Assembly: GCA_963920525.1 (NCBI GenBank)
Contig: OY986435.1
Span: forward strand, 103,522,615 to 103,586,614
Source of the DNA: Dichetophora obliterata
Taxonomy: Eukaryota; Arthropoda; Insecta; Diptera; Sciomyzidae
Direction: 5' to 3'
Length of the DNA: 64,000 nucleotides
Shown: positions 2,620-60,334 of the stretch, one piece after another
Layout: every line of letters begins with the position of its first letter
Numbering within the stretch: position 1 is the stretch's first letter
Made by a program: the position numbers and the translations under genes
Notes under the pieces: model-generated
The model's database searches: none
Seen by the model: only the letters and a program-made list of their open reading frames with translations
What the model was told of the DNA's origin: nothing

Positions 2620-3830
2620 TGGTAAACTAATAAAAGTGAAGAGGTTAGTGTTCTATCTTTTAAAGATTGTAAACCAAGAAGTTTACGTCGAATATCATAA
2701 GATGGAAGACCATCAGGCCATTGCAACTTTTTGAGAGAAATCTTGTAATAATTCTTTGGTCTCGTTCTATACGATTTGAATACTGGACATAATTAAAAGG
2801 ATTTCAAATAATTAAACAGTACTCAATCTTATTACGTACAAGTGACACATAAAGTGCTTTTATTGTATGCGGATCCCTAAAATTTTGGGTATTCCGCTTA
2901 ATGAAACCAACCATTAAATTAGATTTTGCAACAATACAGTCGCAATAAGAATTAAAACCGAAGTTCAAATCGAATATAACACCCAAATCTTGTATCTCTT
3001 GTTTACGTGTTAAAATTATACTATTTAATGAATAATTATATGAAATTGTGTTCAAAGTTTTGGCATAAGTAACCACCCAACACTTATTTACATTTAAATT
3101 TAAATTGTTTGTAGCACACCAATTGTGGAAGCGTACTACATCACTTTGAAGCTTTTGACAATCAGAAAGTTGCGAAATCTTTAGAAAAAGTTTAACGTCA
3201 TCTGCAAACATTAAGCATTTAGAAAACTCGAAATACTGAGGTAAATCATTAATAAAAATTAAAAACAATAAAGGACCACAGTGGGTCCCTTGCGAAATAC
3301 CAGAAGAAGCTGTTATTTGGGTTTCAGAATATGTATCTCCAATTTTAACAAGTAGTTTTCTATCCTTTAAGAAACTGGTAACAAATTTTATTATTCCTTC
3401 TGACAAACCAAATTTCCTTAACGTATACAGTAAAATGTTGTGGTCAACTTTATCGAAAGCTTTTGCAAAATCAGTACAACCTACATCTAATTGATTTCGA
3501 AACTCTAAAGTGTCAACTATTTTTCTTGAGATGAGTGCCAAATTTGAACAAGTCGATCTACCAGGCATTAAACCATGTTGGCAATCACTTATTGCATTTT
3601 TCACGTGATATAATAATTTTTTTTTCAGAATGTGATCAAAAAGTTTTGCAAAGGTGTTTTGATTAACAATAGCTCTATAATTATTATTATTTCTGCGATC
3701 TAAAAATTGGAACAATAAAACATATTTTCCATGAGTCTAAGAAAATACCAGTTTTCAAACAGATATTTAAATAGTATAGAAATGGGCTCAGCAATACTGT
3801 CTATAAAAATTTGAAGGAACATTTATACAT
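2620..3830 (-). pseudogene. LINE reverse transcriptase fragment (CR1/Jockey-type)
   Basis: An open frame of about 303 codons (3715-2804) carries the reverse transcriptase core of a non-LTR retrotransposon. In order it has a finger region with NYRAIVNQNTFAKLFD, motif A DFAKAFDKVDH, the motif B region SSGISQGTHCGPLLF, the catalytic box FADDVKLF, and the thumb motif LGVIFD. Frame-shifted continuations lie on both sides. Upstream to about 3830 there is SIAEPISILFKYLFENW. Downstream to about 2620 there is LPSYDIRRKLLGLQSLKDRT. The first catalytic Asp and the paired Asp are kept, but the frame is broken at both ends and no endonuclease is attached. It is therefore a dead fragment. The FADD box and LGVIFD fit CR1/Jockey-like LINEs; the exact clade needs a tree. 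Confidence 0.85.
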
Positions 3831-6120: not shown

Positions 6121-6365
6121 TATTTGAAAAAAAAATTATTTTACCTACGACAACCCTCACTTGTTATCTATACATATAATAAAACTGTAAAAAAAATCTG
6201 TAGGCACAATGAATATTTTTTCGAAATTCGAATGTGGTTTCCAAAAATGTTGTCTGTCTGTCTGTCCGAACGTGCATCACGTGAAAACTACTAGATGGGT
6301 TTTCTTCAAACTTGACATGTAGATTCCTTACGTTCCTGATTGGGACATAGGCTGCTTTTTATCAC
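6121..6365 (+). other. Transposon-like segment with TCTG microsatellite
   Basis: It begins ATCTATACATATAATAAAA, then has TGTCTGTCTGTCTGTC and a segment around GTGAAAACTACTAGATGG. This combination is common at the left end of Helitron-like and related dispersed repeats in insects. It leads straight into the giant inverted repeat at 6366 and is not present beyond the other arm. The family assignment is a guess. Confidence 0.3.
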
Positions 6366-9326
6366 AAAAAAAGGACTCTCTTCAAAATAACGGTTTTTTC
6401 GCAAAATAATGAAAATTAAAAACACTGAAACGTGAGTTTAAAATTACAGATACGTTTGAATAACCTATGAAAGAGTTTTTGGTAATTAAAAGGGTTATAA
6501 ACACCACCTGGACGTTTTCGTTTATCTCTAATGAAGTACCCTACAAAATGCATTTTTTAACCAATATATGTTAATGTATACTAACTTATTCCATTTTCTT
6601 AAGTATAATAAAGTAAAAAATATTTCCGTTTGTTTGAAACCAGTAACATTCTCATATGGGTGAAAACAAAACAAAACAAAACAGCAAATCGGTGTACTCG
6701 ACCTTTTTTAAAAATTCTGTAAAAATTATCAACATTTTAGTTGGGTCTGTAGATACTGGAAATGGCATTTTTTTATTTACTCGCTAATTTATTTTGCAAG
6801 TAAGATGGGTTCAAAAATGATGAAAATAATGAAAAATATGCATATTTTTGATGATTTATTTCTTGAAAACCAATAGAGATAAAATCTTTCAACTTTTTTA
6901 TTTCAATGTAAAAATATAAGATTTTAATATGTGTATCCAAACTTTTTCAAAATTACAGTTTAAAAAAAAAGCTCTATTGAAGATATATTTTTTTTTTCAT
7001 CAATTTTATAGTTTTCAACCCTTCTCAAAATTTTTTTTCTCAGACAGTATTTTTGGGACTTATATGGTATACAGACGTGCTCATAGACTTTACTAAGAGT
7101 GATTCCATTGCTTTTCGACAAAAAAATTAAATTCTCAACCTGACCCTCTCCGATTTGGTTTAAAGTTTGCATACACGTAGTGTTGGCTACAATTTAGAAA
7201 ATCTATTTGTAATTTTTATTTTTTTCTAGTGGTTACTGAGTTACGGGTACTCAAAAATTGAAAAAAGGACTTTTTTTCTTGGGGACTGATTTTCATTTGA
7301 TCATAACTTCGGTTAAGTTTGAGATAGAGCAACGATTTTAGGTTCATATTAAAGATATTTTCCAAAGGCTTTTTTTGTATAACAAAACTTTACAATTTCT
7401 CAAAGATTTACTTTTTTTTTTTGCATAAAAGTTTAAAAACAAAATATTTTGATGAAAGTCAATTTAAAAAATTTTGAAAAAAATATATATTAATTAACGA
7501 TAGTTTATCTAAGTTCTCTGAAAATTTCGGCCTGAGACGACAAGGGGAGCACTAATAAAATAATTTTGAAGTAAACTTACTTTAAAATTTATGCTCAACA
7601 CAGCAGCTTGCGAGAAAGCTAAAAGAACTGAACACACTAAAGAAGACCATGTGTGTGTGTGCACAGTGCGATATCTGTTTTTTTGTCTCACAGTGATGTC
7701 TACCAAAATTGTTAAGTGTTAAACTTTATGTCTAATGTTTAATATGAAAGTTTTTTCAGTTGGCTTTTTCATAATGTTAAAAATTGTTATATATGTTATA
7801 CATATACATATTATGCATGTATATATGCATTTCGGCAGAGTTCGAAATATTGGACGCAATAAAACCAAGACTAAAAAACAAATATAAGATTGTTTTCTTA
7901 TTTAAAAAGTGAACTTGAGCCCGAAATAAACTCAAAATCATAAATTAAGAGGTCAAAGAATAAATCATATTCGGCCTTATTCTTGAATATTCGCTCTCAA
8001 AAGGACGTCGAAGCAAAATTGCCATATTTTTGAAACTTTCAATTTCGACTTTGAGATCTGCAGTGATTTTTTACTCAATTATTGAGCAAACGTCGTCAAA
8101 TAAATATTTAAATTTTTCTTAATCAGTTCTTGCTTTTTGTTTCTTGTCCTCAAAAATATAAATCGTTTTCTGATTTTTATGTAATAAAAATTGTTTTTCG
8201 ATTGTAATTTTTTTGCTCATAATAAAAATCGTTTAATGATTTTTATTATTCAGCTCAAAAATTAAAAACATTTTTTGATTTAATTTTTTTTTTCTCTAAA
8301 ATAAAAATCGTTCTATGATTCCTAATTAATTGCTCTGAAATATTGTTTTGTGATTTTAATGTTTGTGCTCAGATATAAAAATGTGCATTTAAAAATCAAT
8401 ATATAATTTTTTTTTAAAATGATTCCAAATAATGCTTCCAAATAATTAATATTCTTATTAATTTTAATGTTATTTTTTTCTTATATATATATATTAAATG
8501 AGTTTTTAATAAAGTTGAGTAATACGGAGCATTAAAAGTATTAGAATAAAATAATTGAAGTCGACTTATTACCAAATAGAATGATATTAACGCAACCGTG
8601 TGCATTTTTCGCTCAAATGCTCTCATTCTCTCACCCTGCTTTTACTTCAAAATAAGCATAACTGTTTATTAATGAATCTTGGTTTTAACAAGAGAAAAAG
8701 CAGTGTACGCATGTCAAGTCTTTTAATGACATAAAGGGATAAGCTCTACTGTACTCATCCTTTTCAAGCATGTCATACAGATAACAAAGTACCATTATCC
8801 AAATAGCATATAATACATTGTTAAGTGATCAGCGGTGTGATCAAAATTAAGGCTTTTGACGAAGTGTCCGAAAAAACTGTTAAATATCTTTTGAATTTGC
8901 TTCTAAAATTTTTTAAACACGATATTGTACTAAAAGTATTTTATCACATTGAGTGAAAAAACTTAGCTAGCATAATAATTGTTTATCTGAATCCGGTTTA
9001 GTTGTCATTTTTAGACTTATGATACCCTTTATTACATCTTCAACAGATACATGTAAAGAAACTAACGAAAGCGATGAGTTAAGAAAAGGTAGTAGGTGGA
9101 TTAAAATTTGATTCAAAGAAATCAGCGAAAAGGTTTGCATTTTCAATAGCACTTTCAGAGCTTATATTTCTTAAAAACATGCATGTGGGAACTTACGAAC
9201 TTTTTTCTTCGAATTAACAACATAACTCCAAAAAGCTTTCGGGTTTGATTTTATGTTTGTTTCAATATTTTGAACATACTGTTTATTTAAATATTTATCC
9301 AGAAAATTAAGCTCCCTCATATAATG

Positions 9327-9843
9327 TGGCGACCGTAGCCTAGTGGGTAGAGTGCGTGGCCCCTAAGCTAAAGAACTGCGGTAGCCCGGGTTCAATTCCA
9401 GCTCAGACAGAAAGTTTTTTCAATTGAATTAATTTTTCTGTTCGGTCGTCACCTCTCTGCAGACAATGGCAAAACTCAGAGAGTAAAATTTGCCATGTAA
9501 GGCTTCTTGAGAACATAAGGCGTTCGGAGTCGGCATAAAACACGTAGGTCCAGTTCTCGGTCATTTGTGATCAAACATTAATAACACGCACAACACAATT
9601 GATCAATAGAAGCTAGGTCAAAGTCACCTCTCTGCAGACAATGGCAAAACTCAGAGAGTAAAATTTGCCATGTAAGGCTTCTTGAGAACATAAGGCGTTC
9701 GGAGTCGGCATAAAACACGTAGGTCCAGTTCTCGGTCATTTGTGATCAAACATTAATAACACGCACAACACAATTGATCAATAGAAGCTAGGTCAAAGTC
9801 CTTCCAAGGGCTGAAATGTCCAGTTTATTTTATTTTTTTTTTT
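9327..9843 (+). mobile_element. tRNA-derived SINE with internal duplication
   Basis: The head contains a pol III A box (TAGCCTAGTGGG) and B box (GGGTTCAATTCC) in a tRNA-like layout. The target duplication CATATAATG is at 9318-9326 and 9844-9852, so it inserted into the LINE linker. The sense-strand 3' end is T-rich (TTTATTTTATTTTTT), not A-rich. Without the extra 175-base unit the element would be about 342 bases, equal to the other copies. Confidence 0.85.
9449..9798 (+). repeat. Exact-looking 175-base tandem duplication in the SINE
   Basis: Two units, 9449-9623 and 9624-9798, both start TCACCTCTCTGCAG and end just before the final tail. The mirrored SINE in the right arm has one unit, so the duplication arose after the arms separated. 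Confidence 0.85.
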
Positions 9844-10525
9844 CATATAATGTCTATGCTTTTTAAAGTAATCTATATTTTTAGATGCAGCCCATTTTTT
9901 ATAAAATTTATTGCGAAGACTTTTTAATTTTACTAGACCCACCCCGGTGGGTACCATGGCATTTTATATCTTTGCTCGCGTTTTTTAGGAACGTGCTCCC
10001 AAAAATTTTTTAAAAGGATAGATTTAAATATCATACAAGAGTCAGAAACATTACAGCAAGTTTGTTCATTATGCCGATTTTCGCTGTGCAAAATATTATT
10101 CTACAGATTAAAATTACAATTATTAAAGTTAAAATTATATTCATTATTAATTTTCGTATCACAACTAAGGAAAATATAAAAGTCTAAATCTATAGACAAA
10201 GGAATGTGATGCATATTAGGTGGTGACATAGGGAAAACAGCTTCACTTAGAGTGAAGTTAATATTATAATTTATGAAAGCAAGATCCAATATTTTATTTA
10301 ATTTATTTCTGCTACCGTTAATCTGTAATAAATCCAGTTCCAAGAAATTGTCAATAACAAGTACCTCGAGGTCACTATTACCATTTAAAGGTACTAAGCT
10401 TTCACCTACAGATACTTGAGACCAATTAATTTTACTTAAGTTGAAATCTCCAAGAATGCATAATTGATGATTATTGCTACAATTAAGTGCAAGATGCTTT
10501 ACATTTTCCATGTGAGCTTTATATA

Positions 10526-10748
10526 GGCCCCTATTATGTATTACAACTCAACTTAAGTTGACTAGATTCAACTAATTTTTTTTCTCATAATTTATTACAT
10601 ACAGTCCAGTTGAACTATGTTGTTTGAAAATTCTTAAAAGATTAAGGCAAACTACATGGTTCAACTAAAATAAATGTAATACGTTATATGAAAAAAATTT
10701 AGTTGAATCTAGTCAACTTAAGTTGAGTTATTTTACATAATAGGGGCC
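10526..10748. mobile_element. 223-base near-palindromic MITE (left arm)
   Basis: The inverted ends are GGCCCCTATTATGTA, followed by long inner inverted segments including CAACTTAAGTTGACTAG. It interrupts the LINE endonuclease frame between SPNSALEF and MENVKHLALN. No clear target duplication was seen. The mirror copy is at 17134-17356. Confidence 0.75.
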
Positions 10749-11479
10749 AAAATTCCAATGCACTATTTGGTGAAATATAGAAGACACAGACAAACAACAC
10801 ATCAGATGAGCCCTGAACAGCAACACATAGTTGATCCAACATCGAGTCTACACTTTTTAAGATGCAAGATGATGCTTGTAACGTAGAATTTACAGCAATG
10901 AGAACTCCTCCACCACGGCTATATCCAGTTTTAAGAACATCCCGGTCTTTCCGAAAGACATGATAAATATTAGGGTCAAAAAACTCTTCAACAAAAAAGT
11001 TGGATTTTAGCCAAGTCTCTGTAATAACATATACATCATATTCAATCTGCCAAAAACATTGAGTGTGATTTCGTTCGCATGCCGGATACATTTTGATAAA
11101 AATTTTTTAGTTTATTTGAATCGTTTTTTTCTATGACTTTTCCCCTTGGACCCTTGCTCTTCGAAAAAATTTGAAAGAGCTAACCTTTACGTCTGCAGGC
11201 CAAAGAGATGCATTAAAAACCAAAGAGAAGCAGAAACATCTAGTTTAAAACTAATACTTTTTATCGTGTCTATCGGTGCCGATTTTTTTAAAAGCTTGTG
11301 ACACAGCAAATTATGCCTCTCAGCATTAGCATGTTTTATAACATACACTCTAAAAACGGATTGAAAAATTTCTACAATAAATGTTATGAAATTTCACGAC
11401 ATTTATTTTCGATTTTGTAAAAAAAACCACGCAAAAAAAACCAGCGAGTTTTCCAATTTTGTCTGAAAATCAGCGTCTT

Positions 11480-11735
11480 TTCCAAAATATGTATATTTAC
11501 TCTATTTGAGCGTGTTTTCGCTCAGAGAGCCCTAAAATGTATAAATTCTCTACTTTTCACGCTATTCCAACGTGTTTTCGCTCAGAGAATTCTAAAATAT
11601 GTATATTTTCTACTTTTCACGCTATTTCAGCATGTTTTCGCTCAGAGAGTCTTAAAATATGTATATTTTCCCTACTTTTCACACTATTTCAGCGTGTTCT
11701 CGCTCAGATAGTCCTAAAAACGCTCCAGCAGCGGT
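11480..11735. repeat. About four 62-base tandem repeats (left arm)
   Basis: The unit contains GTGTTTTCGCTCAGAGAG, then CTAAAATATGTATATTTTC, then CTACTTTTCACGCTATT. The copies are slightly diverged and mirrored at 16146-16395. The 73-codon open frame here is a by-product. Confidence 0.85.
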
Positions 11736-11929
11736 ATTTTACGCTTGTCCTTAAATAAACACATCTGCTTTAACGTCATATGATTTCAAAGAGTTTATTC
11801 GAACAAGTGTCAAATTATATACAACCAAAGAGAATAAATTATATCAAGAGGAGCAGAAACTCAATGTTCGCTCTTGAGAATTATTTCAAGACTACAAAGA
11901 TTGGGTTCTGCCGTCGCGCTGCTAATGTT

Positions 11930-12480
11930 GTTCTGCCGACGTTCTTGCTGACTGTTTCGGGCAGAGATATTTTTAAAATTATGTGTGCACAAGCGAGCTG
12001 GGAATACGTTTGTTCTTTTTAGATTGCTTTGGCCTTTTTCTTCCTATTAGAATTGCGATCGTTTTGAATATTTTATTGAAATTAGGAAATTGCAAAAAAT
12101 TGTCAGCTTTGTTTTGGCTGAGCTTTGTTTACATTTTTTTGTCCTATATTTTTAAAGGAAAGATTTCTGTGCAAAAGCAAGCGGCAACAAGTTTTGTTCT
12201 TTTTACCTTTTTCTTCTTACTAGAATTGCGATCATTTGGTACATTTAAGGAATTATGAATGAAATGAAGCAGAACAAGATTTCCTTGAATTTACCAATTT
12301 GTCGATATTCTAATGTTTTGATTCTAAACTTTTTTTGGCTGAGTTGTATTTACATTTTTTTGCTACATTTATAGCAAGGAAGTTTTTCATGCAATTGCAA
12401 ATATTTTATATGAATATATTTTAATTATATTTTATTACAGAATTTTAGCTTTCTATATCGATCATTTGGTACATTGAAAG
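11930..12480. repeat. Degenerate 170-225-base repeats (left arm)
   Basis: Segments around TTGTTCTTTTTA and TAGAATTGCGATCRTTT recur at about 12010/12045, 12200/12217 and again weakly near 12440. Periods are unequal, which indicates old duplications. Mirrored near 15400-15950. Confidence 0.6.
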
Positions 12481-13430
12481 AAATATTGGTGAAATAAACT
12501 AAAATGCCTTTCTTTCAATTTACCAATATCGAACATATTATTGTATTTTTTATTTATATTTATTTATAAAATACTACTCAACTATAACATTTAAATTACA
12601 ATTTCAGAAAATATTAAATTGCAATTCCAAGGTACTTTAATTCAAATTCATTTATTTATTATTATTTCATTTTTTATTTTTAAAAAAGTTCAAAGTTGCC
12701 AATATAATTGGACACTTTTTGTACCTGTACTTCAAGAAATAGTTGAAGAAAATATTTCCACAACATTTCATAGAAATTTGATACAATTGGGATTTTTGCG
12801 ATTTTGTTTTTTAATCTGATAAAACATGCGATATTTCAAATTATCGGACAATTATTAATAAATTATGGTTAAATAATTGCAATTTTCTTAAAAAATATTC
12901 TGAAATAGATTTGAACAATGCAGAAAAGTAAGATTTGAGCAACACAGTAGAGTAACAATTTAGTTGAAGTGTTTGCAGGAATGTATTATAAATAAATTTA
13001 TTTATTTTAATTTGATGTGTCGCTTGTTTTATCAGATTATATAAAACTATTTTAAAATAATTAATGCAATAAAACAAAATATTTTGAGTAATTGAATTAA
13101 AATACTGGGAGGTAAATACTTACTAATTCTATTTGCACTGAAAACCTTATCTTTCCACTACTAAAATTAAAACTTCCAAACAAATTAGTATTTAGCTTAT
13201 TATTTAAAATAATACTTACGAACTACATGACTTATTATATAATATAAGAACTTACAAACTAAAATGTACTCTTAACTGAGATCTTATTACATAATGTACT
13301 CTTATTATATAATATAATAATATACAAAATAACTACTGACTAACTTAAAAACTAAGGAGCGGCAAACATTTCCAAGTAATTTTATTCTTAACTAATCCTA
13401 ACTAATCCTAATTCTTAACCTATCCTTATA

Positions 13431-14455
13431 CAGTGAAAGCTCCCATAAGCGGACACCGATGGTTACCTACTTTTTGTCCGCATATGAGAGATGTCCGCTT
13501 ATGAGAATAACGTAAAAAATAATATTAAAATTCAAATTAAAAAATGAGCATTGCGATATTGTAATTTTAAATAATTTTAATTCTTCAATAGACAAAAACA
13601 ACACTAGTACAAAATAAATTAAAATTTAAATATGTACATTAGAGTGGTCCTTTTCTTTATAAAGTAACGAATTAATTACAGGGGATTTGTTCCTTAACAA
13701 AACAGAAGTAAACTGCAAAATTTTTTAAAAAAACCTGACATTTAAACGTGCCGCTTACAGGTCTTAAGTCTTTGTTCTTAAGTTCTTAGTTCTTTAAGAA
13801 AAAAGGTATTTAGTTGAAAATCAAATTTATATGGGGAAAAAGTGCTTTTTCAAAAAAATCCCATTAAGAGTTTTTTAAGTGAAAATTTAAAAAAAACCGG
13901 TACGCGACCAATTTTTTATTGAATTTTTCTTATAAATGAGAAATGCTGTTGTGATTTTTTACTTTTCGAAAAAAATCTAAATTTTTTCCTTGTTGTACTA
14001 AAAAAAAATCGCAAAACTGCAAATTTGCAAAAAAAAAATTATTGAAATGTTATAGAAATATTTTATTAAACTATGTTTAAAACATATACAAAAAAACTAA
14101 GAACTTAAGAACAAAGACTTAAGACCTGTAAGCGGCACGTTTAAATGTCAGGTTTTTTTAAAAAATTTTGCAGTTTACTTCTGTTTTGTTAAGGAACAAA
14201 TCCCCTGTAATTAATTCGTTACTTTATAAAGAAAAGGACCACTCTAATGTACATATTTAAATTTTAATTTATTTTGTACTAGTGTTGTTTTTGTCTATTG
14301 AAGAATTAAAATTATTTTAAATTACAATATCGCAATGCTCATTTTTTAATTTGAATTTTAATATTATTTTTTACGTTATTCTCATAAGCGGACATCTCTC
14401 ATATGCGGACAAAAAGTAGGTAACCATCGGTGTCCGCTTATGGGAGCTTTCACTG
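13431..14455. mobile_element. Tc1/pogo-like element with 360-base inverted ends
   Basis: It starts CAGTGAAAGCTCCCATAAG and ends with the reverse complement, flanked by TA on both sides (13429-13430 and 14456-14457). The inverted ends run about 360 bases and enclose the 302-base loop. Within each end GTCCGCATATGAG and GTCCGCTTATGAG repeat the AAGCGGAC theme, which resembles pogo/Tigger-type termini. It encodes nothing and sits exactly at the symmetry centre of the giant inverted repeat. Confidence 0.75.
13793..14094. other. Loop of the giant inverted repeat
   Basis: These 302 bases are unpaired by the arms. They are AT-rich with many A and T runs and no open frame. They are also the internal part of the transposon-like element at 13431-14455. 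Confidence 0.85.
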
Positions 14456-16145
14456 TATAAGGATAGGTTAAGAATTAGGATTAGTTAGGATTAGTTAAGA
14501 ATAAAATTACTTGGAAATGTTTGCCGCTCCTTAGTTTTTAAGTCAGTCAGTAGTTATTTTGTATATTATTATATTATATAATAAGAGTAGATTATGTAAT
14601 AAGATCTCAGTTAAGAGTACATTTTAGTTTGTAAGTTCTTATATTATATAATAAGTCATGTAGTTCGTAAGTATTATATTAAATAATAAGCTAAATACTA
14701 ATTTGTTTGGAATTTTAATTTTAGTAGTGGAAAGATAAGGTTTTCAGTGCAAATAGAATTAGTAAGTATTTACCTCCCAATATTTTAATTCAATTACTCA
14801 AAATATTTTGTTTTATTGCATTAATTATTTTAAAATAGTTTTATATAATCTGATAAAACAAGCGACACATCAAATTAAAATAAATAAATTTATTTATAAT
14901 ACATTCCTGCAAACACTTCAACTAAATTGTTACTCTACTGTGTTGCTCAAATCTTACTTTTCTGCATTGTTCAAATCTATTTCAGAATATTTTTTAAGAA
15001 AATTGCAATTATTTAAGCATAATTTATTAATAATTGTCCGATAATTTGAAATATCGCATGTTTTATCAGATTAAAAAACAAAATCGCAAAAATCCCAATT
15101 GTATCAAATTTCTATGAAATGTTGTGGAAATATTTTCTTCAACTATTTCTTGAAGTACAGGTACAAAAAGTGTCCAATTATATTGGCAACTTTGAACTTT
15201 TTTAAAAATAAAAAATGAAATAATAAATAAATGAATTTGAATTAAAGTACCTTGGAATTGCAATTTAATATTTTCTGAAATTGTAATTTAAATATTATAG
15301 TTGAGTAGTATTTGATAAATAAATATAAATAAAAAATACAATAATATGTTCGATATTGGTAAATTGAAAGAAAGGCATTTTAGTTTATTTCACCAATATT
15401 TCTTTCAATGTACCAAATGATCGATATAGAAAGCTAAAATTCTGTAATAAAATATAATTAAAATATATTCATATAAAATATTTGCAATTGCATGAAAAAC
15501 TTCCTTGCTATAAATGTAGCAAAAAAATGTAAATACAACTCAGCCAAAAAAAGTTTAGAATCAAAACATTAGAATATCGACAAATTGGTAAATTCAAGGA
15601 AATCTTGTTCTGCTTCATTTCATTCATAATTCCTTAAATGTACCAAATGATCGCAATTCTAGTAAGAAGAAAAAGGTAAAAAGAACAAAACTTGTTGCCG
15701 CTTGCTTTTGCACAGAAATCTTTCCTTTAAAAATATAGGACAAAAAAATGTAAACAAAGCTCAGCCAAAACAAAGCTGACAATTTTTTGCAATTTCCTAA
15801 TTTCAATAAAATATTCAAAACGATCGCAATTCTAATAGGAAGAAAAAGGCCAAAGCAATCTAAAAAGAACAAACGTATTCCCAGCTCGCTTGTGCACACA
15901 TAATTTTAAAAATATCTCTGCCCGAAACAGTCAGCAAGAACGTCGGCAGAACAACATTAGCAGCGCGACGGCAGAACCCAATCTTTGTAGTCTTGAAATA
16001 ATTCTCAAGAGCGAACATTGAGTTTCTGCTCCTCTTGATATAATTTATTCTCTTTGGTTGTATATAATTTGACACTTGTTCGAATAAACTCTTTGAAATC
16101 ATATGACGTTAAAGCAGATGTGTTTATTTAAGGACAAGCGTAAAA

Positions 16146-16395
16146 TACCGCTGTTGGAGCGTTTTTAGGACTATCTGAGCGAGAACACGCTGAAATAGTG
16201 TGAAAAGTAGGGAAAATATACATATTTTAAGACTCTCTGAGCGAAAACATGCTGAAATAGCGTGAAAAGTAGAAAATATACATATTTTAGAATTCTCTGA
16301 GCGAAAACACGTTGGAATAGCGTGAAAAGTAGAGAATTTATACATTTTAGGGCTCTCTGAGCGAAAACACGCTCAAATAGAGTAAATATACATAT
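16146..16395. repeat. About four 62-base tandem repeats (right arm mirror)
   Basis: This is the reverse complement of the array at 11480-11735, with the same number and order of units. Confidence 0.85.
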
Positions 16396-17133
16396 TTTGG
16401 AAAAGACGCTGATTTTCAGACAAAATTGGAAAACTCGCTGGTTTTTTTTGCGTGGTTTTTTTTACAAAATCGAAAATAAATGTCGTGAAATTTCATAACA
16501 TTTATTGTAGAAATTTTTCAATCCGTTTTTAGAGTGTATGTTATAAAACATGCTAATGCTGAGAGGCATAATTTGCTGTGTCACAAGCTTTTAAAAAAAT
16601 CGGCACCGATAGACACGATAAAAAGTATTAGTTTTAAACTAGATGTTTCTGCTTCTCTTTGGTTTTTAATGCATCTCTTTGGCCTGCAGACGTAAAGGTT
16701 AGCTCTTTCAAATTTTTTCGAAGAGCAAGGGTCCAAGGGGAAAAGTCATAGAAAAAAACGATTCAAATAAACTAAAAAATTTTTATCAAAATGTATCCGG
16801 CATGCGAACGAAATCACACTCAATGTTTTTGGCAGATTGAATATGATGTATATGTTATTACAGAGACTTGGCTAAAATCCAACTTTTTTGTTGAAGAGTT
16901 TTTTGACCCTAATATTTATCATGTCTTTCGGAAAGACCGGGATGTTCTTAAAACTGGATATAGCAGTGGTGGAGGAGTTCTCATTGCTGTAAATTCTACG
17001 TTACAAGCATCATCTTGCATCTTAAAAAGTGTAGACTCGATGTTGGATCAACTATGTGTTGCTGTTCAGGGCTCATCTGATGTGTTGTTTGTCTGTGTCT
17101 TCTATATTTCACCAAATAGTGCATTGGAATTTT

Positions 17134-17356
17134 GGCCCCTATTATGTAAAATAACTCAACTTAAGTTGACTAGATTCAACTAAATTTTTTTCATATAACG
17201 TATTACATTTATTTTAGTTGAACCATGTACTTTGCCTTAATCTTTTAAGAATTTTCAAACAACATAGTTCAACTGGAATGTATGTAATAAATTATGAGAA
17301 AAAAAATTAGTTGAATCTAGTCAACTTAAGTTGAGTTGTAATACATAATAGGGGCC
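17134..17356. mobile_element. 223-base near-palindromic MITE (right arm)
   Basis: This is the mirror of the element at 10526-10748. It has the same length and the same LINE junctions, so it was present before the inverted duplication formed. Confidence 0.75.
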
Positions 17357-17445
17357 TATATAAAGCTCACATGGAAAATGTAAAGCATCTTGCACTTAAT
17401 TGTAGCAATAATCAGCAATTATGCATTCTTGGAGATTTCAACTTA

Positions 17446-18732
17446 TTGGGGGTTGGAATTAGTTTTAAAGGTTTTCTAAGAGATGGCGTAACTATCAATA
17501 GATCGCATCGGGCACACCTGTGACTATATTCATTTCAAAGCACATTGTCTAAGCTTCATTTTTCAGTATGTGTCATTCCACTGAAGTGTAAACAACATAT
17601 ATTTTTTTCTCTGTGAACATGTCGACTTTCGTTCCAACAAAACGCAATTTGCGGGAAGGTTTACTTTTGTGCTTCCATTTGAAGAAAAAAGCGGTTGAAG
17701 CACAACGCACGCTTACTGAGGCTTACGGGGACTATGCTCCATCGATTTCTACTTGTGAGTACTGGTTCCGTCGGTTTAAAAGTGATGATTTTGATACGGA
17801 AGACAAAGAGCGTCCGGGCCAGCCGAAAAAGTTTGAAGATGAGGAATTGGAGGCTTTGATCGATGAAGACCCGTGTCAAACCCTTCAAGAATTGTCAGAA
17901 TCATTGGGAGTCGACTTATCAACGGTCGGCAAACGCTTGAAGGCCATGGGAATGATTCAAAAGCAAGGAAATTGGGTGCCGTACCAGTTGAAGCCGAGAG
18001 ACGTTGAACGGCGATTTTGCATGTGCGAACAACTGCTTCAACGGCATAAAACGAAGAGTTTTTGCATCGTATTGTCACTGGCGATGAAAAATGGATCCAT
18101 TACGATAATCCTAAGCGAAAAAAATCGTGGGGACCACCCGGCCATGCATCAACATCGAGGGCCAAGCCGAATATTCATGGCGCCAAGCTTATGCTGTGTA
18201 TTTGGTGGGATCAGAAGGGTGTCGTGTACTATGAGCTGCTAAAACCTAACGAAACCATCACTGGGGAACGCTACCAACAACAATTGATGCAATTGAGCCG
18301 AGCATTAAAGGTTAAACGGCCGGAATATGCCAAAAGACACGACAAAGTGGTTTTTCAACATGACAACGCACGGCCACATGTTGCAAGAACCGTCAAGGAA
18401 ACGTTGGAGGCGCTGAATTGGGATGTGCTACCCCACCCGCCTTATAGCCCAGACATAGCCCCTTCCGACTACCACCTATTCAGATCGATGACGCATGGCT
18501 TGGCTGAGCAGCGCTTCACTTCTTACGAGGATACCAAAAAATGGGTCGATTCGTGGATTGCCTCAAAAGACGAATCGTTCTTCCGGCGCGGAATCCATAT
18601 GCTGCCAGAAAGATGGGAAAATATTGTAGCTAACGATGGACAATACTTTGAATAATATACATTGTACCGTTTTTTCTAAATAAATGCTCAAAAACCGAAA
18701 AAAAAACCTTTAAAATTAATTCCAACCCCCAA
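17446..18732 (+). mobile_element. Mariner element, copy A
   Basis: The element is 1,287 bases with inverted ends TTGGGGGTTGGAATTA, flanked by TA at 17444-17445 and 18733-18734. The uninterrupted target (TTTCAACTTAAGTAAAATT) survives in the left arm near 10430, showing that this insertion came after the inverted duplication or exists on only one haplotype. Confidence 0.95.
17619..18655 (+). pseudogene. Mariner transposase A, single frameshift
   Basis: The transposase is of the Mos1/mauritiana type and nearly identical to the intact copy at 34758-35795. It reads from the ATG at 17619. Near 18058-18063 a T run is one base shorter than in copy B (5 instead of 6), which shifts the frame after KSF. 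The second half (from about 18070) continues in another frame to the normal end DGQYFE. The helix-turn-helix region, the WVPYQL linker and the catalytic Asp residues in TGDEKW, FQHDNARPH and PYSPDIAPSDYH are all encoded, but in two frames. It is a very recent loss of function. Confidence 0.93.
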
Positions 18733-19327
18733 TAAGTAAAATTAATTGGTCTCAAGTATCTGTAGGTGAAAGCTTAGTACCTTTAAATGGTAATAGTGAC
18801 CTCGAGGTACTTGTTATTGACAATTTCTTGGAACTGGATTTATTACAGATTAACGGTAGCAGAAATAAATTAAATAAAATATTGGATCTTGCTTTCATAA
18901 ATTATAATATTAACTTCACTCTAAGTGAAGCTGTTTTCCCTATGTCACCACCTAATATGCATCACATTCCTTTGTCTATAGATTTAGACTTTTATATTTT
19001 CCTTAGTTGTGATACGAAAATTAATAATGAATATAATTTTAACTTTAATAATTGTAATTTTAATCTGTAGAATAATATTTTGCACAGCGTAAATCGGCAT
19101 AATGAACAAACTTGCTGTAATGTTTCTGACTCTTGTATGATATTTAAATCTATCCTTTTAAAAAATTTTTGGGAGCACGTTCCTAAAAAACGCGAGCAAA
19201 GATATAAAATGCCATGGTACCCACCGGGGTGGGTCTAGTAAAATTAAAAAGTCTTCGCAATAAATTTTATAAAAAATGGGCTGCATCTAAAAATATAGAT
19301 TACTTTAAAAAGCATAGACATTATATG

Positions 19328-19668
19328 AAAAAAAAAATAAAATAAACTGGACATTTCAGCCCTTGGAAGGACTTTGACCTAGCTTCTATTGATCAATTGT
19401 GTTGTGCGTGTTATTAATGTTTGATCACAAATGACCGAGAACTGGACCTACGTGTTTTATGCCGACTCCGAACGCCTTATGTTCTCAAGAAGCCTTACAT
19501 GGCAAATTTTACTCTCTGAGTTTTGCCATTGTCTGCAGAGAGGTGACGACCGAACAGAAAAATTAATTCAATTGAAAAAACTTTCTGTCTGAGCTGGAAT
19601 TGAACCCGGGCTACCGCAGTTCTTTAGCTTAGGGGCCACGCACTCTACCCACTAGGCTACGGTCGCCA
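19328..19668 (-). mobile_element. tRNA-derived SINE (right arm)
   Basis: The element is 341 bases, reverse complement of the left-arm copy but without the 175-base duplication. The target duplication CATTATATG is at 19319-19327 and 19669-19677. A and B boxes are intact near 19653-19642 and 19607-19596. Confidence 0.85.
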
Positions 19669-21196
19669 CATTATATGAGGGAGCTTAATTTTCTGGATAA
19701 ATATTTAAATAAACAGTATGTTCAAAATATTGAAACAAACATAAAATCAAACCCGAAAGCTTTTTGGAGTTATGTTGTTAATTCGAAGAAAAAAGTTCGT
19801 AAGTTCCCACATGCATGTTTTTAAGAAATATAAGCTCTCAAAGTGCTATTGAAAATGCAAACCTTTTCGCTGATTTCTTTGAATCAAATTTTAATCCACC
19901 TACTACCTTTTCTTAACTCATCGCTTTCGTTAGTTTCTTTACATGTATCTGTTGAAGATGTAATAAAGGGTATCATAAGTCTAAAAATGACAACTAAACC
20001 GGATTCAGATAAACAATTATTATGCTAGCTAAGTTTTTTCACTCAATGTGATAAAATACTTTTAGTACAATATCGTGTTTAAAAAATTTTAGAAGCAAAT
20101 TCAAAAGATATTTAACAGTTTTTTCGGACACTTCGTCAAAAGCCTTAATTTTGATCACACCGCTGATCACTTAACAATGTATTATATGCTATTTGGATAA
20201 TGGTACTTTGTTATCTGTATGACATGCTTGAAAAGGATGAGTACAGTAGAGCTTATCCCTTTATGTCATTAAAAGACTTGACATGCGTACACTGCTTTTT
20301 CTCTTGTTAAAACCAAGATTCATTAATATACAGTTATGCTTATTTTGAAGTAAAAGCAGGGTGAGAGAATGAGAGCATTTGAGCGAAAAATGCACACGGT
20401 TGCGTTAATATCATTCTATTTGGTAATAAGTCGACTTCAATTATTTTATTCTAATACTTTTAATGCTCCGTATTACTCAACTTTATTAAAAACTCATTTA
20501 ATATATATATATAAGAAAAAAAATAATAACATTAAAATTAATAAGAATATTAATTATTTGGAAGCATTATTTGGAACCATTTAAAAAAAAAATTATATAT
20601 TGATTTTTAAATGCACATTTTTATATCTGAGCACAAACATTAAAATCACAAAACAATATTTCAGAGCAATTAATTAGGAATCATAGAACGATTTTTATTT
20701 TAGAGAAAAAAAAAATTAAATCAAAAAATGTTTTTAATTTTTGAGCTGAATAATAAAAATCATTAAACGATTTTTATTATGAGCAAAAAAATTACAATCG
20801 AAAAACAATTTTTATTACATAAAAATCAGAAAACGATTTATATTTTTGAGGACAAGAAACAAAAAGCAAGAACTGATTAAGAAAAATTTAAATATTTATT
20901 TGACGACGTTTGCTCAATAATTGAGTAAAAAATCACTGCAGATCTCAAAGTCGAAATTGAAAGTTTCAAAAATATGGCAATTTTGCTTCGACGTCCTTTT
21001 GAGAGCGAATATTCAAGAATAAGGCCGAATATGATTTATTCTTTGACCTCTTAATTTATGATTTTGAGTTTATTTCGGGCTCAAGTTCACTTTTTAAATA
21101 AGAAAACAATCTTATATTTGTTTTTTAGTCTTGGTTTTATTGCGTCCAATATTTCGAACTCTGCCGAAATGCATATATACATGCATAATATGTATA

Positions 21197-22822
21197 CAGT
21201 GACACATATTCGTATAAACGCACTCTTAATTTTAAATTTGCTACCTTCTCTCTCTTTTATTAATGCATTACTCAAAACAAATTCCAACTCATATTGTTTA
21301 CTAAACTAACGGAAATTTGTACTGAGTGCAAAAACCTGTTTTCGTTTTTGTTGTTTTATATAAATCATTTCAGTTTAAATATTTTACTTAAAACAAGTAC
21401 ATATTCGTTTAAACGCATCAACTTAATTTTCAATAGGAATGGGTATTTATTTAATTTTCAATAATTAATTGGTCCACCATTTTTATTTATAACTTCAAAT
21501 ATACGATTCGGCATCGACTTCACTAAATTTTCCAGCAACTGACGATCTAAATCTTCCCAAGCTTCCTTAATGGCCAACTTGAGCTCTAGTACGGTTTTGT
21601 AAAGGTGTCCTTGGGCTTTTTGTCCATAGATTTTGCGTGATATGCATCCCCAAAGATTCTCCACCGGATTCAAATCGGGACTGCATGCAGGCCATTTCAC
21701 AAGTGGGATGTTGTGCTCTTCAAACCACTTTAATGCCTCTTTAGAAACGTGAATGGCAGCATTATCCTGTTGAAAAAATACTGTCTTCATCCATTTTATC
21801 ATCCAAAAATTAAATGAGAGCATCATCCAACAATTCCGTGTATTTTTTAGAATTCATTTTGGGCGGCACAAAGCAGATATTTGCTTTACCTCTAGATGAA
21901 AATGCCGCCCACACCATAACGCTGCCACCACCAAAGTTTCTTTTTGACATACGTGCGTCATTGTTTCGCAAATCATGCCAATAACAGCTGTAAGAGTCTG
22001 GGCCATCTAAGTTAAATTTTTTTCATCGGAAAACACAACATTGTCCCACTCAGTTGACCATTGCATGTGTTTTTGGGCGAAGTCTAAGCGCGCCTTTTTG
22101 TGATGCGGCTTCAACACAGGCTTGCTCACCGGTTTTTTCCATTTAACGTTATCTGAGTCACGTAAAATGTGTGCAATGTGCCTCGTTGTCACTGGAAGAT
22201 CTAATTTTTCTTTTGTTTGAGTTGAGTTCAAAAAACTTGTGGTGGCTTCCTTCCTAATTTGATTAACTTGGCGAATACTCAGTTTTCGATTGCCTTTCGT
22301 GGATTTTTTTACTCCATAATTAACATCGTTTTTTAAAAAAGAGCGGACGACTGCTTCTGATCTTCCTAGTCTCCGCCCAATTTCCCGATTTGAATAACCC
22401 TCTTTATGTTACAGGTTGATTTGAACTTTTTCTGTGTCATTGAGGTATTTTCCCTTTGGCATTTTGATAAAATCTTAAAAAAATATCATTAAGAAAATAT
22501 TTTTACATTTAAATTAAATAAAACTTACCAATTGTTAATTAAATACAAGCAAATACTTATTTCTTTAAACCACTAATATATTTTCGACCTCCTTATTCAG
22601 GTGCGTTTAAAGGAATGTGTACTTGTTTTTAGTAAAATATTTAAACTGAACTGATTTATATAAAACAACAACAACGAAAACAGCTTTTTGCACTCAGTAC
22701 AAATTTCCGTTAGTTTAGTGAACAATATGAGTTTGAATTTGTTTTGAATAATGCATTAATAAAAAAAAGAGAAGGTAGCAAATTTAAAATTAAGAGTGCG
22801 TTTATACGAATATGTGTCACTG
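21197..22822 (-). mobile_element. Tc1-like element with about 220-base inverted ends
   Basis: The element is 1,626 bases. Both ends read inward as CAGTGACACATATTCG, with inverted similarity continuing for about 220 bases. TA lies on each side (21195-21196 and 22823-22824). The empty site (CATAATATGTATATGTATAAC) is preserved in reverse complement in the left arm near 7790-7815. Long inverted ends are seen in some Tc1-family groups. Confidence 0.93.
21458..22462 (-). pseudogene. Tc1-like transposase (DD34E), broken
   Basis: The frame starts with MPKGKYLNDTEKVQINL, but codon 18 is a stop. It then continues with a helix-turn-helix region (GYSNREIGRRLGRSEAVVR) and IRQVNQIRKEATTSF. The catalytic residues are visible: Asp in VVFSDEK, Asp in FFQQDNAAIH, and Glu in SPDLNPVENLWG, 34 residues after the second Asp. 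Frameshifts near 22013 and 21800 split the catalytic domain. The C-terminus ends MPNRIFEVINKNGG. The total would be about 335 residues, normal for the family. At least three lesions make it non-functional. Confidence 0.9.
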
Positions 22823-24261
22823 TATGTATAACATATATAACAATTTTTAACATTATGAAAAAACCAACTGAAAAAACTTTCATATTAAACATTAGACATA
22901 AAGTTTAACACTTAACAATTTTGGTAGACATCACTGTGAGACAAAAAAACAGATATCGCACTGTGCACACACACACATGGTCTTCTTTAGTGTGTTCAGT
23001 TCTTGTAGCTTTCTCGCAAGCTGCTGTGTTGAGCATAAATTTTAGAGTAAGTTTACTTCAAAATTATTTTATTAGTGCTCCCCTTGTCGTCTCAGGCCGA
23101 AATTTTCAGAGAACTTAGATAAACTATCGTTAATTAATATATATTTTTTTCAAAATTTTTTAAATTGACTTTCATCAAAATATTTTGTTTTTAAACTTTT
23201 ATGCAAAAAAAAAAGTAAATCTTTGAGAAATTGTAAAGTTTTGTTATACAAAATAAGCCTTTGGAAAATATCTTTAATATGAACCTAAAATCGTTGCTCT
23301 ATCTCAAACTTAACCGAAGTTATGATCAAATGAAAATCAGTCCCCAAGAAAAAAAGTCCTTTTTTCAATTTTTTAGTACCCGTAACTCAGTAACCACTAG
23401 AAAAAAATAAAAATTACAAATAGATTTTCTAAATTGTAGCCAACACTACGTGTATGCAAAGTTTAAACCAAATCGGAGAGGGTCAGGTTGAGAATTTAAT
23501 TTTTTTTGTCGAAAAGCAATGGAATCACTCTTAGTAAAGTCTATGAGCACGTCTGTATACCATATAAGTCCCAAAAATACTGTCTGAGAAAAAAAATCTT
23601 GAGAAGGGTTGAAAACTATAAAATTGATGAAAAAAAATATATCTTCAATAGAGCTTTTTTTTTAAACTGTAATTTTGAAAAAGTTTGGATACACATATTA
23701 AAATCTTATATTTTTACATTGAAATAAAAAAGTTGAAAGATTTTATCTCTATTGGTTTTCAAGAAATAAATCATTAAAAATATGCAAATTTTTTATTATT
23801 TTCATCATTTTTTAACCCATCTTACTTGCAAAATAAATTAGCGAGTAAATAAAAAAATGCCATTTCCAGTATCTACAGACCCAACTAAAATGTTGATAAT
23901 TTTTACAGAATTTTTAAAAAAGGTCGAGTACACCGATTTGCTGTTTTGTTTTGTTTTGTTTTCACCCATATGAGAATGTTACTGGTTTCAAACAAACGGA
24001 AATATTTTTTACTTTATTATACTTAAGAAAATGGAATAAGTTAGTATACATTAACATATATTGGTTAAAAAATGCATTTTGTAGGGTACTTCATTAGAGA
24101 TAAACGAAAACGTCTAGGTGGTGTTTATAACCCTTTTAATTACCAAAAACTCTTTCATAGGTTATTCAAACGCATCTGTAATTTTAAACTCACGTTTCAG
24201 TGTTTTTAATTTTCATTATTTTGCAAAAAAACCGTTATTTTGAAGAGAGTCCTTTTTTTCG

Positions 24262-25577
24262 TTTACGTATAAAACGACTTTTTCGACTGCAGAGGAACGA
24301 GAATGGGCATTCCTGAAAATTATTGAAATTATTTAGAGACATGAATTTTCTGATGAAATGCATAAGTTAATAAGTCCCAGGTACTTACCTCCCAGTATTC
24401 AAAAACTGACTCCATTCATCCACGAATTTAGAGATGGAAATCGAATCTTTAATCTTCTTCATGTCGGCGGTCGTCTTCATAATGCACAAATTTCATACGA
24501 ATCCAAGTTTCCACTACTTATGCCTAAAAAATCGCACTTCGTCGAAATATACCTACGGTATCTACACATAACTAATTTTGATGTTGGTCAAAAAGCATTA
24601 GTTACTCTTCTTCGTCAGAAAATCTGGTTAATAAATGCACCAAAAGTCTGTAGCAGAACCTGCATACACTGCTTCCGTTATAAGCCTAAACTCCAGACTC
24701 AGATTATGGGAAATTTACCTTCTGATCGTTTGAGAGCACTACGTCTGTTTTTATTTAGCAGCATGGTCCCGTATACGCGACCCATAAAATTCCCGTCCCG
24801 TATACACGACCATCTGACTGTTTCATTCTCTCTTAAAAGGTTCATCGGACGCCGTGGGCCTCCTTTAGAAGATGCACTGCGACAATGCGACGAACTTCGG
24901 AGGAGTGAGTCGGAAGTTACGAGAGCTGCAAGAGGCGTTCGAGAAAGGGAAGGACAGGCTCGTCTCATACGCCGCAGAAGTAGGAACCGAATTTGTGTAC
25001 ATACCTCCAGGGCACCATACTTCGGAGGGCTGTGGAAAGCAGCTGTTAAGTCCGTCAAGCACCTGTTTCTGCGAACAGGTGACTCGGCAGCGCTCTGCTC
25101 ACCACCGAAGAACTGAACACGGTGATCGTAGAGGCCGTAATAAATTCTCGACCAATCGCACCACTGAGATAAGATCCCAACGACATCGAAGACCTGACCC
25201 CAGCGCATCTAATAATCGGGAGTTCTCTGCGCACGTTGCAGCCCGTATCCGTGCTCGCCATGCCCGACAGCAAGCTGGCGTGTTTTAAGAGGTGGCGACT
25301 CTTATGCAAGCTCAAACGCAGATTCTGGCACTCTTGGTCGAGAGAGTACGTGCCTGCAGTCCCGCAACAAATAGGTGACCGAGCGGTCTAACATCGCAGT
25401 GGACTAGTTTTTCGTGGTGAACGAAGACCACGTTCCTCTACAACAATGATCGGCAGAGTGGTTGCCGTAATCGCCGGACAAGACGGCAAGGTTCGTGTTG
25501 CGGACATCAAAACCAGTGCCGGAAGTTTTAGGAGGCCTATCCATAAATTGGCCGTACTGACGTTGGAGAATGTTTGA
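24262..25577 (+). pseudogene. BEL/Pao retrotransposon pol fragment (integrase)
   Basis: The recognisable order is a zinc-binding region (LLHVGGRLHNAQISYESK, CSRTCIHCFRYKP), MGNLPSDRLRAL, an integrase core remnant (ALRRFIGRRG-like, CDNATNFGGVSRKLREL, PPGHHTSEGCGKQL), and a C-terminal region near 25300-25570 (RWRLLCKLKRRFWHSW, GRVVAVIAGQDGKVRVAD, RRPIHKLAVLTLE). Several frameshifts and stops interrupt it. Integrase inserts retroelement cDNA into the genome. The 5' side is cut exactly at the end of the inverted-repeat arm, so protease and reverse transcriptase are missing. The region is GC-richer than its surroundings. Confidence 0.85.
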
Positions 25578-31239: not shown

Positions 31240-32697
31240 GTTTGTTTCTGGATTTTGAAAATTGCTCAGCTACCTTATATCAAAATTATTTAGACAATAT
31301 TAAGCTGAGAATATTGTCTGATCCAAACAAATTCTGGGGTTCCATACACACAAAAAAAATTTGATGTGATGGATTCCCTTCATCATTTAAAACTTCTGAC
31401 GGATTTACTGACGATCCCGTCGTAATTTGTGGTCTATTTGCCAATCTCTTAAAAGAGTTATTTTGTTCAGACTCTTTTAATCCTGATGAAGAGTACTTTG
31501 AATATATGAATTCTACACCCAGGGTTTCGTTGGATAATATCCTTTACTTCAGAGGATATTTTAAAATATATTGGATCGATCGATGAGGATTCTAATGCTG
31601 GACCTGACGGAATTCCTGCCGCAGTGTTAACACGATGCGGTTCCGTTTTAAGCCAACCACTGTCCATGTTATTCAAGAAATCAATTAGTGAAAGTATTTT
31701 TCCACTTTTTTGGAAAAAATCTTTCATAAGTCCTATTTATAAAAAGGTTGTAAGAACGATATAAACAACTACAGGCCTATCGCGAAACTCTCGTCAATTC
31801 CAAAACTTTTTGAGCGGCTCGTGTATGATTGTGTGAAAATTCACTGTGGGAAGGTCATAACTCGTCAGCATGGATTTGTTACTGGCAGATCCACTGTGTC
31901 TAATCTCCTCGATTTTACAACGTTTTGCTTAAATTCATTTTATTCAGGTAGTCTGAATTCCAGTCTGATTTGAAATAATATGTTTCTAAATCCAGATAAA
32001 TGCCAAACTATGACTTTTTCGCGAAAAAGGAATAATTTAATTTTTGATTTTAAGATAAAATATACTGCTTTAAGTCGTGTAGATGCTGTCAAAGATCTTA
32101 GTATTTGCATGAATTCTAAGCTATCGTTTAACGTTCATATTGATTACATTTGTAAAAAAGCATCTTCTATGCTCGGGTTTATAAAACGCTGGGCCAAAGA
32201 ATTTAATAGTATGATTACAACTACAACGCTGTATTATGCAATTGTGCGACCTCACTTGGAGTATGCAAGTCAAGTTTGGTCCCCAAGTTACAATGTACAT
32301 GTTGAACGTATAGAGAGAATCCAAAAACGTTTTATTCGGTTTGCTCTAAGGGGCTTAAGTGGAATTGACACTTTAAACCTTCCTCCTTATGAGGATCGTT
32401 TAAAACTATTAAAAATGCAATCTTTAAATGAGCGAAGGAAATCTGCGGATATCGTCTATTTACACCTACTCATAACTGGTGTGTTCGATTCACCAGAACA
32501 CCTAACTCTTATTAACTTAACACTAACCGTAGAAGCAGAAGAAACTCTAACAATTTAATTTACTTATTTTTTAGTAGAACAAATTATATGGCTACTGCTC
32601 CCTTAAATCGCATGAGTACCTTTGTTAACAACTGTAGCTTTTTTGATGTTAACTTATCGAAAGGTCAACTCAAAAGTAGATTGAAAACTAATGTATG
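31240..32697 (+). pseudogene. LINE fragment with reverse transcriptase core deleted
   Basis: The linker and finger region reads NKFWGSIH, DSNAGPDGIPAAVL, FWKKSFISPIYKK and RQHGFVTGRSTVSNL in broken frames up to about 31945. It then jumps directly to the thumb region at 31980 (FLNPDKCQTMTFSRK), followed by SSMLGFIKRWAKEF, YAIVRPHLEYASQVWSP and VERIERIQKRFIRFAL. The segment that should hold the FADD box is absent, an internal deletion. The C-terminal frame of 192 codons is open, but the element is plainly dead. A GCCCAACCCACATGGTGGG hairpin follows in the 3' region near 32750. Confidence 0.85.
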
Positions 32698-34548: not shown

Positions 34549-34681
34549 GGCCCGTATGCATAAAAAAGAGTGAACTCTGCAAAGTAGTGCTTGCTACTAA
34601 GTAGTGAAAGGTTAGTAGTGAACACTACTTTTGGTATGAATAAAAATTTTAAGCAAGCTCTATTTTTAAATTTCGAACTTA

Positions 34682-45927: not shown

Positions 45928-45929
45928 TA

Positions 45930-56766: not shown

Positions 56767-56779
56767 CTAATTGTACTCT

Positions 56780-60120: not shown

Positions 60121-60334
60121 AATAAAAATTTAAATTTGGACACAGATATTACTTAAGTATCTGTGATACTAGTATCTAGCCCGGGTATTTATAGAGGCTA
60201 ATTAACTATTAATGTAATATATTAATTAAGTGTGTATATATGTATAAATGTAAATATTTTTTTCTTATATATTAGTTCTTAATCTTTTTGATAATTCATC
60301 AAAGTAATTTTTTATAATGCCATGAGCAAGCATT

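What the first reader, a model, noticed from the sequence alone, without database searches (positions are those of the whole stretch)
6366..24259. A 17.9-kb near-perfect giant palindrome
Two arms of about 7.25 kb of shared sequence face each other around a 302-base loop. Mirror landmarks stay aligned over the whole length. The left flank (TCTG-rich repeat) and right flank (BEL/Pao integrase) differ, so the arm ends look like breakpoints. Such long palindromes are unstable and rare in assembled genomes.
Basis: seen in the sequence. Interest (0 to 1): 0.9.

Follow-up and report, generated by a model that had tools for sequence, protein, structure and literature searches.

The report
Foldback transposon with duplicated inverted flank
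The giant palindrome is really in the assembly: a 4.2-kb hairpin-shaped transposon sits at its centre, and about 5.4 kb of the DNA on its left has been copied backwards onto its right side, the trace of a repair or replication accident of a kind known from yeast and from human disease.

Summary
The palindrome is present: arms 6366-13795 and 14091-24259, 295-bp loop, 33 substitutions over ~7.25 kb (0.46%), two DNA-transposon insertions in the right arm only, an extra 175-bp tandem copy in the left. It is two nested things. The middle, 11826-16056 (4231 bp), belongs to a dispersed foldback-transposon family: 99 termini in the 1.31-Gb assembly, 64 of which pair into 32 candidate two-ended copies; exact 7-bp target duplications in 3 of 10 other two-ended copies read. 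Outside it, 5.46 kb of left flank recurs, inverted, on the right; first 100 bp outside the element 99% mirrored here, 22-41% in the 10 others. Dispersed repeats orient the event: one runs across the left arm end in 38 of 38 main places elsewhere, so that end is native; 0 of 43 non-window matches cross the right arm end, the breakpoint. The element interrupts another repeat whose other half, present in 3 of 3 copies fetched, is missing on its right. Best explanation: inverted-repeat-primed copying of the left flank, then non-homologous joining with loss of the original right flank. Known mechanism, neat natural example. Assembly artefact is unlikely but untested: no reads.

The parts
6366..13795 (+). 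left arm of the palindrome (original side), 7430 bp
   Evidence: which side is original
14091..24259 (-). right arm of the palindrome, 10,169 bp including two later transposon insertions
13796..14090 (.). 295-bp loop; identical over 295 bp, same orientation, to the loop of the next family copy upstream (L002, L004)
11826..16056 (.). foldback transposon, 4231 bp: two inverted arms of 1970 bp (99.34%) plus the loop; both ends begin CAAAGAGAATAAATTATATCAAGAGGAGCAGAAACTC; imperfect direct repeats about 170-230 bp apart inside the arms
6366..11825 (+). left flank X of the element, original, 5460 bp (repeat-rich; a LINE-type endonuclease fragment by a weak Pfam match; a tRNA-like SINE stretch by eye)
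16057..24259 (-). X', inverted copy of X on the right of the element (about 5.3 kb shared with X plus the two insertions)
6166..6676 (.). dispersed repeat that runs across the left arm end (6365/6366) in 38 of 38 main places elsewhere: left arm end is native
11344..11825 (+). left part of a dispersed repeat interrupted by the element; in three other copies it continues after ...ATATACAAC with sequence missing to the right of the element here
24259..24260 (.). rearrangement breakpoint at the end of X'; the next ~17-26 bp (to about 24276-24285) are not covered by either neighbour's repeat family
17446..18734 (+). mariner insertion in the right arm (Transposase_1 match; reading frame split in this copy); empty TA site in the left arm
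21197..22824 (-). Tc1-like insertion in the right arm (HTH_Tnp_Tc3_2 and DDE_3 matches); empty TA site in the left arm
9448..9800 (+). 175-bp unit in two tandem copies in the left arm, one copy in the right arm

Best explanation
A foldback transposon (11826-16056) had inserted into a dispersed repeat. Later the chromosome broke, or a replication fork stalled, in or just to the right of the element. The strand carrying the right arm annealed to the left arm (in cis as a fold-back, or on the sister) and primed synthesis outwards, copying about 5.3-5.5 kb of the left flank X in inverted orientation. The new end let go and was joined without homology to sequence further right, so the original right flank, including the rest of the target repeat, was lost. 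Result: X - element - X' - new flank, an inverted duplication with adjacent deletion centred on the transposon. Afterwards the arms diverged by 0.46% and the right arm received a mariner and a Tc1-like insertion. Shown: nested structure, native left end, non-homologous right end, which side is the copy, absence of the rest of the target repeat. Inferred: the break or stall, priming by the transposon arms, a single event.
For: The symmetry centre is the element, and the mirrored flanks begin at its termini: first 100 bp outside are 99% mirrored here against 22-41% in 10 other two-ended copies. The left arm end lies inside a repeat that is continuous elsewhere, 38 of 38 main places. The right arm end is crossed by 0 of 43 non-window matches: arm-side matches stop at 24255-24262, right-flank matches start at 24277-24285 or later. 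The target repeat's continuation, seen in 3 of 3 other copies fetched, is absent to the right of the element in the window. Two searched parts of X (6366-6966, 10950-11825) have near-identical full matches only in the two arms, among 40 places scored each; 6967-10949 was not searched. Element family: 99 termini, 0 for the reversed control pattern. Inverted-repeat-primed inverted duplication is established in yeast (PMC10164571, abstract and discussion; PMC10622511, abstract and section 11); inverted duplication with deletion by one inverted-repeat junction and one junction of little homology is described for human Factor 8 (PMC10766186, abstract and sections 6-7).
Against: 0 of 10 other two-ended copies read show a mirrored flank, so the family does not do this often. 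No reads, so the join at the centre is not checked physically. The break and the priming leave no direct trace. The outermost 1.44 kb of the arms is more diverged (14 in ~1435) than the rest of X (10 in ~3846; Fisher P 0.0017), which one event does not explain by itself.
Confidence: 0.76

Rival explanations
1. Assembly artefact: two haplotypes of the X region were joined head to head through the palindromic element, so the arms are alleles, not a duplication.
For: Arm differences (0.46% substitutions, two insertion differences, one tandem-copy difference) would also suit two haplotypes; a 4.2-kb element with 99.3% arms invites wrong joins; no reads could be checked.
Against: The right arm does not run on into the left flank as an allele would: it stops in the middle of a repeat and passes into an unrelated repeat, which needs a second, independent false join. 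A missed-adapter read would give near-identical arms with the same insertions, which these are not.
Confidence: 0.12
2. A special case of the best explanation (its odds are part of that 0.76): cut-and-paste excision of the element left a gap; repair copied the element back from the sister, switched arms inside the palindrome, ran outwards through X and was end-joined.
For: 7-bp target duplications in 3 of 10 copies imply a transposase that cuts at the ends; gap repair finished by end joining is known for P elements in flies (recalled, not looked up). Window copy and upstream copy have crosswise-matching arms at 743, 831-833 and 1043 but same-side match at 1967 and in the loop: arms have been exchanged in the family.
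Against: No element terminus or target duplication remains at the right junction; not separable from other forms of inverted-repeat priming by sequence.
Confidence: 0.2
3. The whole 17.9 kb is one transposon with 7.4-kb inverted arms that inserted as a unit.
For: One Galileo copy with arms of 4.2 and 4.7 kb is described (PMC4168063, section 6).
Against: 25 of 25 termini printed, 23 of them outside the window, lie at the 11826 equivalent, none at 6366; the searched parts of X have no third near-identical copy; the left end is native and the outer ends carry no target duplication.
Confidence: 0.03

Closest known systems
Galileo, foldback-like element of the P superfamily (Drosophila)
   Same: Long, internally repetitive inverted arms with a short middle; 7-bp target duplications; arms on average more alike within a copy (mean 99.3%, 97.4-99.9) than between copies (mean 97.2%, though up to 100% between some copies on C7); copies bounded by non-matching 7-bp sequences (Galileo: PMC3573991 and PMC2775673 passages).
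   Different: Arms ~2 kb in this copy; no transposase found: five frames of 80-148 codons from the middles of two longer copies have no Pfam match, and none of 128 P-element C-terminal matches lies within 165 kb of any of 99 termini. Superfamily unproven.
Foldback-type elements such as Tetris (Drosophila virilis)
   Same: Architecture: inverted arms with internal direct repeats, no coding capacity seen.
   Different: Tetris has 8-10-bp target duplications (PMC4079207, passages); here 7 bp.
Inverted-repeat-induced inverted duplication with deletion (yeast fold-back; human Factor 8 type)
   Same: Inverted repeat at the centre, inverted copy of one flank, second junction without homology, loss of the other flank.
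   Different: Here interstitial, ~5.4 kb, old enough to have gathered 0.46% divergence and two insertions, and the inverted repeat is a single foldback transposon.
Galileo-made chromosomal inversions
   Same: Foldback-like transposon as agent of rearrangement (PMC2775673, passages).
   Different: Those come from exchange between two distant copies; this is a local inverted duplication at one copy.

Membership tests
Foldback-type DNA transposon | long inverted arms around a short middle, at many places, with fixed ends | tested here: met
   99 termini at up to 3 mismatches, 64 of them forming 32 + then - pairs within 15 kb (0.6-12 kb, median 4.2 kb), 35 unpaired; 25 of 25 termini printed start CAAAGAGAATA (place C1_104435, without a clear end, was not among them); of 8 further places read, 3 gave 4 termini by the scan used
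Foldback-type DNA transposon | target-site duplication of fixed length | tested here: met
   exact 7 bp in 3 of 10 other two-ended copies (chance about 4e-10 for a fixed length of 7), non-matching in 7 of 10; not testable in the window copy, whose flank is mirrored
Galileo / P superfamily | P-type transposase in a longer copy with the same ends | tested here: not met
   two longer copies, 0 of 5 frames with a Pfam match; nearest of 128 PF12596 matches 165 kb from a terminus; 150 of 302 candidates scored. Not every copy was read; THAP and RNase H-type families were not searched.
Galileo / P superfamily | 7-bp target duplication | tested here: met
Inverted duplication with adjacent deletion at an inverted repeat | one junction at the inverted repeat, one of little or no homology | tested here: met
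Inverted duplication with adjacent deletion at an inverted repeat | loss of sequence next to the inverted repeat on the side of the copy | tested here: met
   rest of the target repeat missing to the right of the element in the window, present in 3 of 3 other copies fetched; beyond the window not examined
Inverted duplication with adjacent deletion at an inverted repeat | physical presence in the organism (reads, map) | not testable with these tools
   no reads held

The most novel reading that the evidence does not exclude
Foldback transposons of this kind turn their own flanks into long palindromes as a recurrent by-product of transposition or gap repair: the polymerase switches arms inside the element and copies the flank back. 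The non-matching target duplications in 7 of 10 other copies would then partly be outcomes of such repair, since eroded, rather than of exchange between copies.
Probability: 0.15. Interest if true: 0.6.

Novelty: new member of a known kind. Interest (0 to 1): 0.42.

Why it matters
It is a natural instance of the inverted duplication with deletion that inverted repeats cause in yeast and in human disease, in which the original side, the native end, the breakpoint and the lost sequence can all be read from dispersed repeats. It shows a single foldback transposon at the centre of such an event, and a 17.9-kb palindrome that, if real, lasted long enough to gather 0.46% divergence and two insertions. 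It also warns that long palindromes in assemblies need not be artefacts.

Tried and rejected
A single 17.9-kb transposon was rejected because the 25 termini printed lie at the 11826 equivalent and the searched parts of X have no third near-identical copy. A missed-adapter read was rejected because the arms differ by insertions and substitutions. Exchange between the window copy and the copy 19 kb upstream would invert, not duplicate, the interval (reasoning only). Aberrant transposition ending at a transposon end was disfavoured: no element terminus at the right junction. A template for the bases just after the breakpoint was sought in the window and not found (longest shared word 10 bases). 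A transposase was sought in the middles of two longer copies: no frame above 148 codons and no Pfam match in the five frames of 80 codons or more; many offset matches between the two middles suggest tandem repeats. Rfam at gathering scores and ARAGORN gave nothing in the window. The mariner protein search found many relatives but did not name the host, which stays unknown; the transposons look insect-like (recalled).

Literature: searches answered were made; searches failed. I make no claim that this is absent from print. PMC12368964 was seen as abstract only and is not used.

Full report
Observation. The window is G000:C1:103522615-103586614 of a 1.31-Gb eukaryote assembly in 76 contigs. The palindrome is there: left arm 6366-13795, right arm 14091-24259, loop 295 bp. 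Over ~7.25 kb of shared sequence there are 33 substitutions (0.455%), 7 small indels and 3 large differences: a Tc1-like and a mariner insertion in the right arm, each with a single TA at the empty site in the left arm, and a 175-bp unit that is double in the left arm.

The centre is a transposon. A 501-bp query from the right arm gave 41 matches (829 candidates, 40 places scored), nine close pairs of them inverted in minus-then-plus order, the window's own pair included. In the fetched copies homology to the window's centre ends at the equivalents of 11826 and 16056 wherever an end is in hand: 25 of 25 termini printed, 2 of them the window's, begin CAAAGAGAATA. One fetched place, C1_104435, had no clear end and is not among them; of 8 further places, 3 gave 4 termini by the scan used. 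The element is 4231 bp, two arms of 1970 bp at 99.34% and the loop. A pattern search found 99 termini at up to 3 mismatches, with 0 for the reversed control; 64 form 32 candidate two-ended copies (0.6-12 kb, median 4.2 kb), 35 stay unpaired. Of 10 other two-ended copies with both flanks in hand, 3 have an exact 7-bp target duplication and 7 do not. Over the outer 1.1 kb, arms inside a copy are 97.4-99.9% alike (10 copies, mean 99.3%) against a mean of 97.2% between copies; between copies values reach 100% for copies on C7 and 99.6% for the window copy and its upstream neighbour. That neighbour, 19 kb upstream, has a loop identical over 295 bp in the same orientation, yet its arms match the window's crosswise at three diagnostic places in the outer part of the arm and same-side at the inner end: evidence of exchange between arms.

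The flank is a copy. The first 100 bp outside the element are 99% mirrored in the window and 22-41% in the 10 other copies. In BLAST of up to 6 kb of each flank, 0 of 9 others show a mirrored flank; two show only short inverted matches (up to 173 bp, 75-85%) away from the termini, and the tenth (L034, 343 and 910 bp of flank) shows none. Three tests orient the duplication. First, a dispersed repeat spanning 6166-6676 is continuous across the left arm end in 38 of 38 main places elsewhere (79-87%; 11 further short rows set aside, one of which also spans it). So X belongs to the left flank. Second, with a query across the right arm end, 0 of 43 non-window matches cross it: 31 arm-side matches stop at 24255-24262 and 12 right-flank matches begin at 24277-24285 or later. 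In 3 of 4 copies of the right-flank repeat looked at, the sequence upstream is shared among them and absent from the window. So the right end is the breakpoint, followed by about 17-26 bp of unassigned sequence, either filler or a diverged edge of the flank repeat. Third, the element interrupts a repeat (11344-11825; 38 other main places, 87-90%). In 3 of 3 other copies fetched the repeat goes on after ...ATATACAAC with sequence not found to the right of the element; the best window match to it is 70% alike over 149 bp and about 34 kb away. The original right flank has therefore been replaced by the inverted copy of the left one. The two parts of X that were searched (6366-6966 and 10950-11825) have no third near-identical copy among the places scored; 6967-10949 was not searched.

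Mechanism. Inverted repeats that meet in single-stranded DNA fold back, prime synthesis and yield inverted duplications in yeast (PMC10164571, abstract and discussion; PMC10622511, abstract and section 11). PMC10766186 describes inverted duplication with deletion having one junction at long inverted repeats and a second of little or no homology, and argues for a replication origin of such events (abstract, sections 6 and 7). The anatomy here is that pattern with a foldback transposon as the inverted repeat. Whether the start was a nuclease cut, a stalled fork, a fold-back in cis, invasion of the sister, or gap repair after excision cannot be told from sequence.

Family. By architecture it works like Galileo or other foldback elements. 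Galileo has 7-bp duplications, non-matching flanks in chimeric copies, parental copies with arms more than 99% alike, and one copy with arms above 4 kb (PMC3573991 passages; PMC2775673 passages; PMC4168063 passages and section 6). Membership of the P superfamily is not shown: 128 matches to the P-element C-terminal family were listed in the genome (150 of 302 candidates scored; 0 of 14 control genomes), the nearest 165 kb from any terminus, and five frames from the middles of two longer copies have no Pfam match.

Against. No reads could be examined. The arm differences alone would fit two haplotypes; what speaks against a false join is the second, non-homologous junction. The outermost 1.44 kb is 0.98% diverged against 0.26% in the rest of X (Fisher P 0.0017); mutagenic repair synthesis, later conversion of the inner arms, or chance are possible and untested. 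Substitution density in X (24 in ~5281) equals that in the element arms (9 in ~1966; P = 1), though three arm differences in the element are shared crosswise with the upstream copy and so predate the split of those two copies. No age was computed.

Verdict. A real feature of the assembly, explained by known processes: a foldback transposon plus an inverted duplication of its left flank with loss of the right one. Interest is moderate.

Noticed in passing
window 39950-42111: Another inverted repeat: arms of about 766 bp, 98.2% alike, 633 bp apart; possibly a second foldback-like element.
   Followed up: no
window 34677-35973 and 44679-45930: Two more copies of the mariner found in the right arm (98.7-99.0% over the aligned parts); the first has one open frame of 354 codons with Transposase_1, HTH_48 and DDE_3 matches.
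   Followed up: partly
window 6366-7803 against 22825-24259: Arm divergence is 0.98% here against 0.26% in the rest of the duplicated flank.
   Followed up: partly
window 9320-9840 and 60334-60670: tRNA-like SINE (by eye) with a 175-bp tail unit in tandem; a 93% copy at 60334.
   Followed up: no
window 10526-10748: Quasi-palindrome of 223 bp (81%) lying between two frames that look like one LINE endonuclease fragment, perhaps a nested miniature inverted-repeat element.
   Followed up: no
L017-L018 (G000:C7:9853051-9873050): Two foldback copies lie 126 bp apart, with 2.69 kb of one the inverse of the other at 99.8%; a third copy with identical outer arms lies 44 kb further on.
   Followed up: no
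L021, L015, L024, L026: Other inverted repeats with arms of about 0.5-1.5 kb (95-99%) in stretches not matched by the studied element: the genome may be rich in foldback structures.
   Followed up: no
window 2804-3736 (-), 56334-57331 (+), 31974-32558 (+): Non-LTR retrotransposon remains; reverse transcriptase or endonuclease matches for the first two, no Pfam match for the third.
   Followed up: partly
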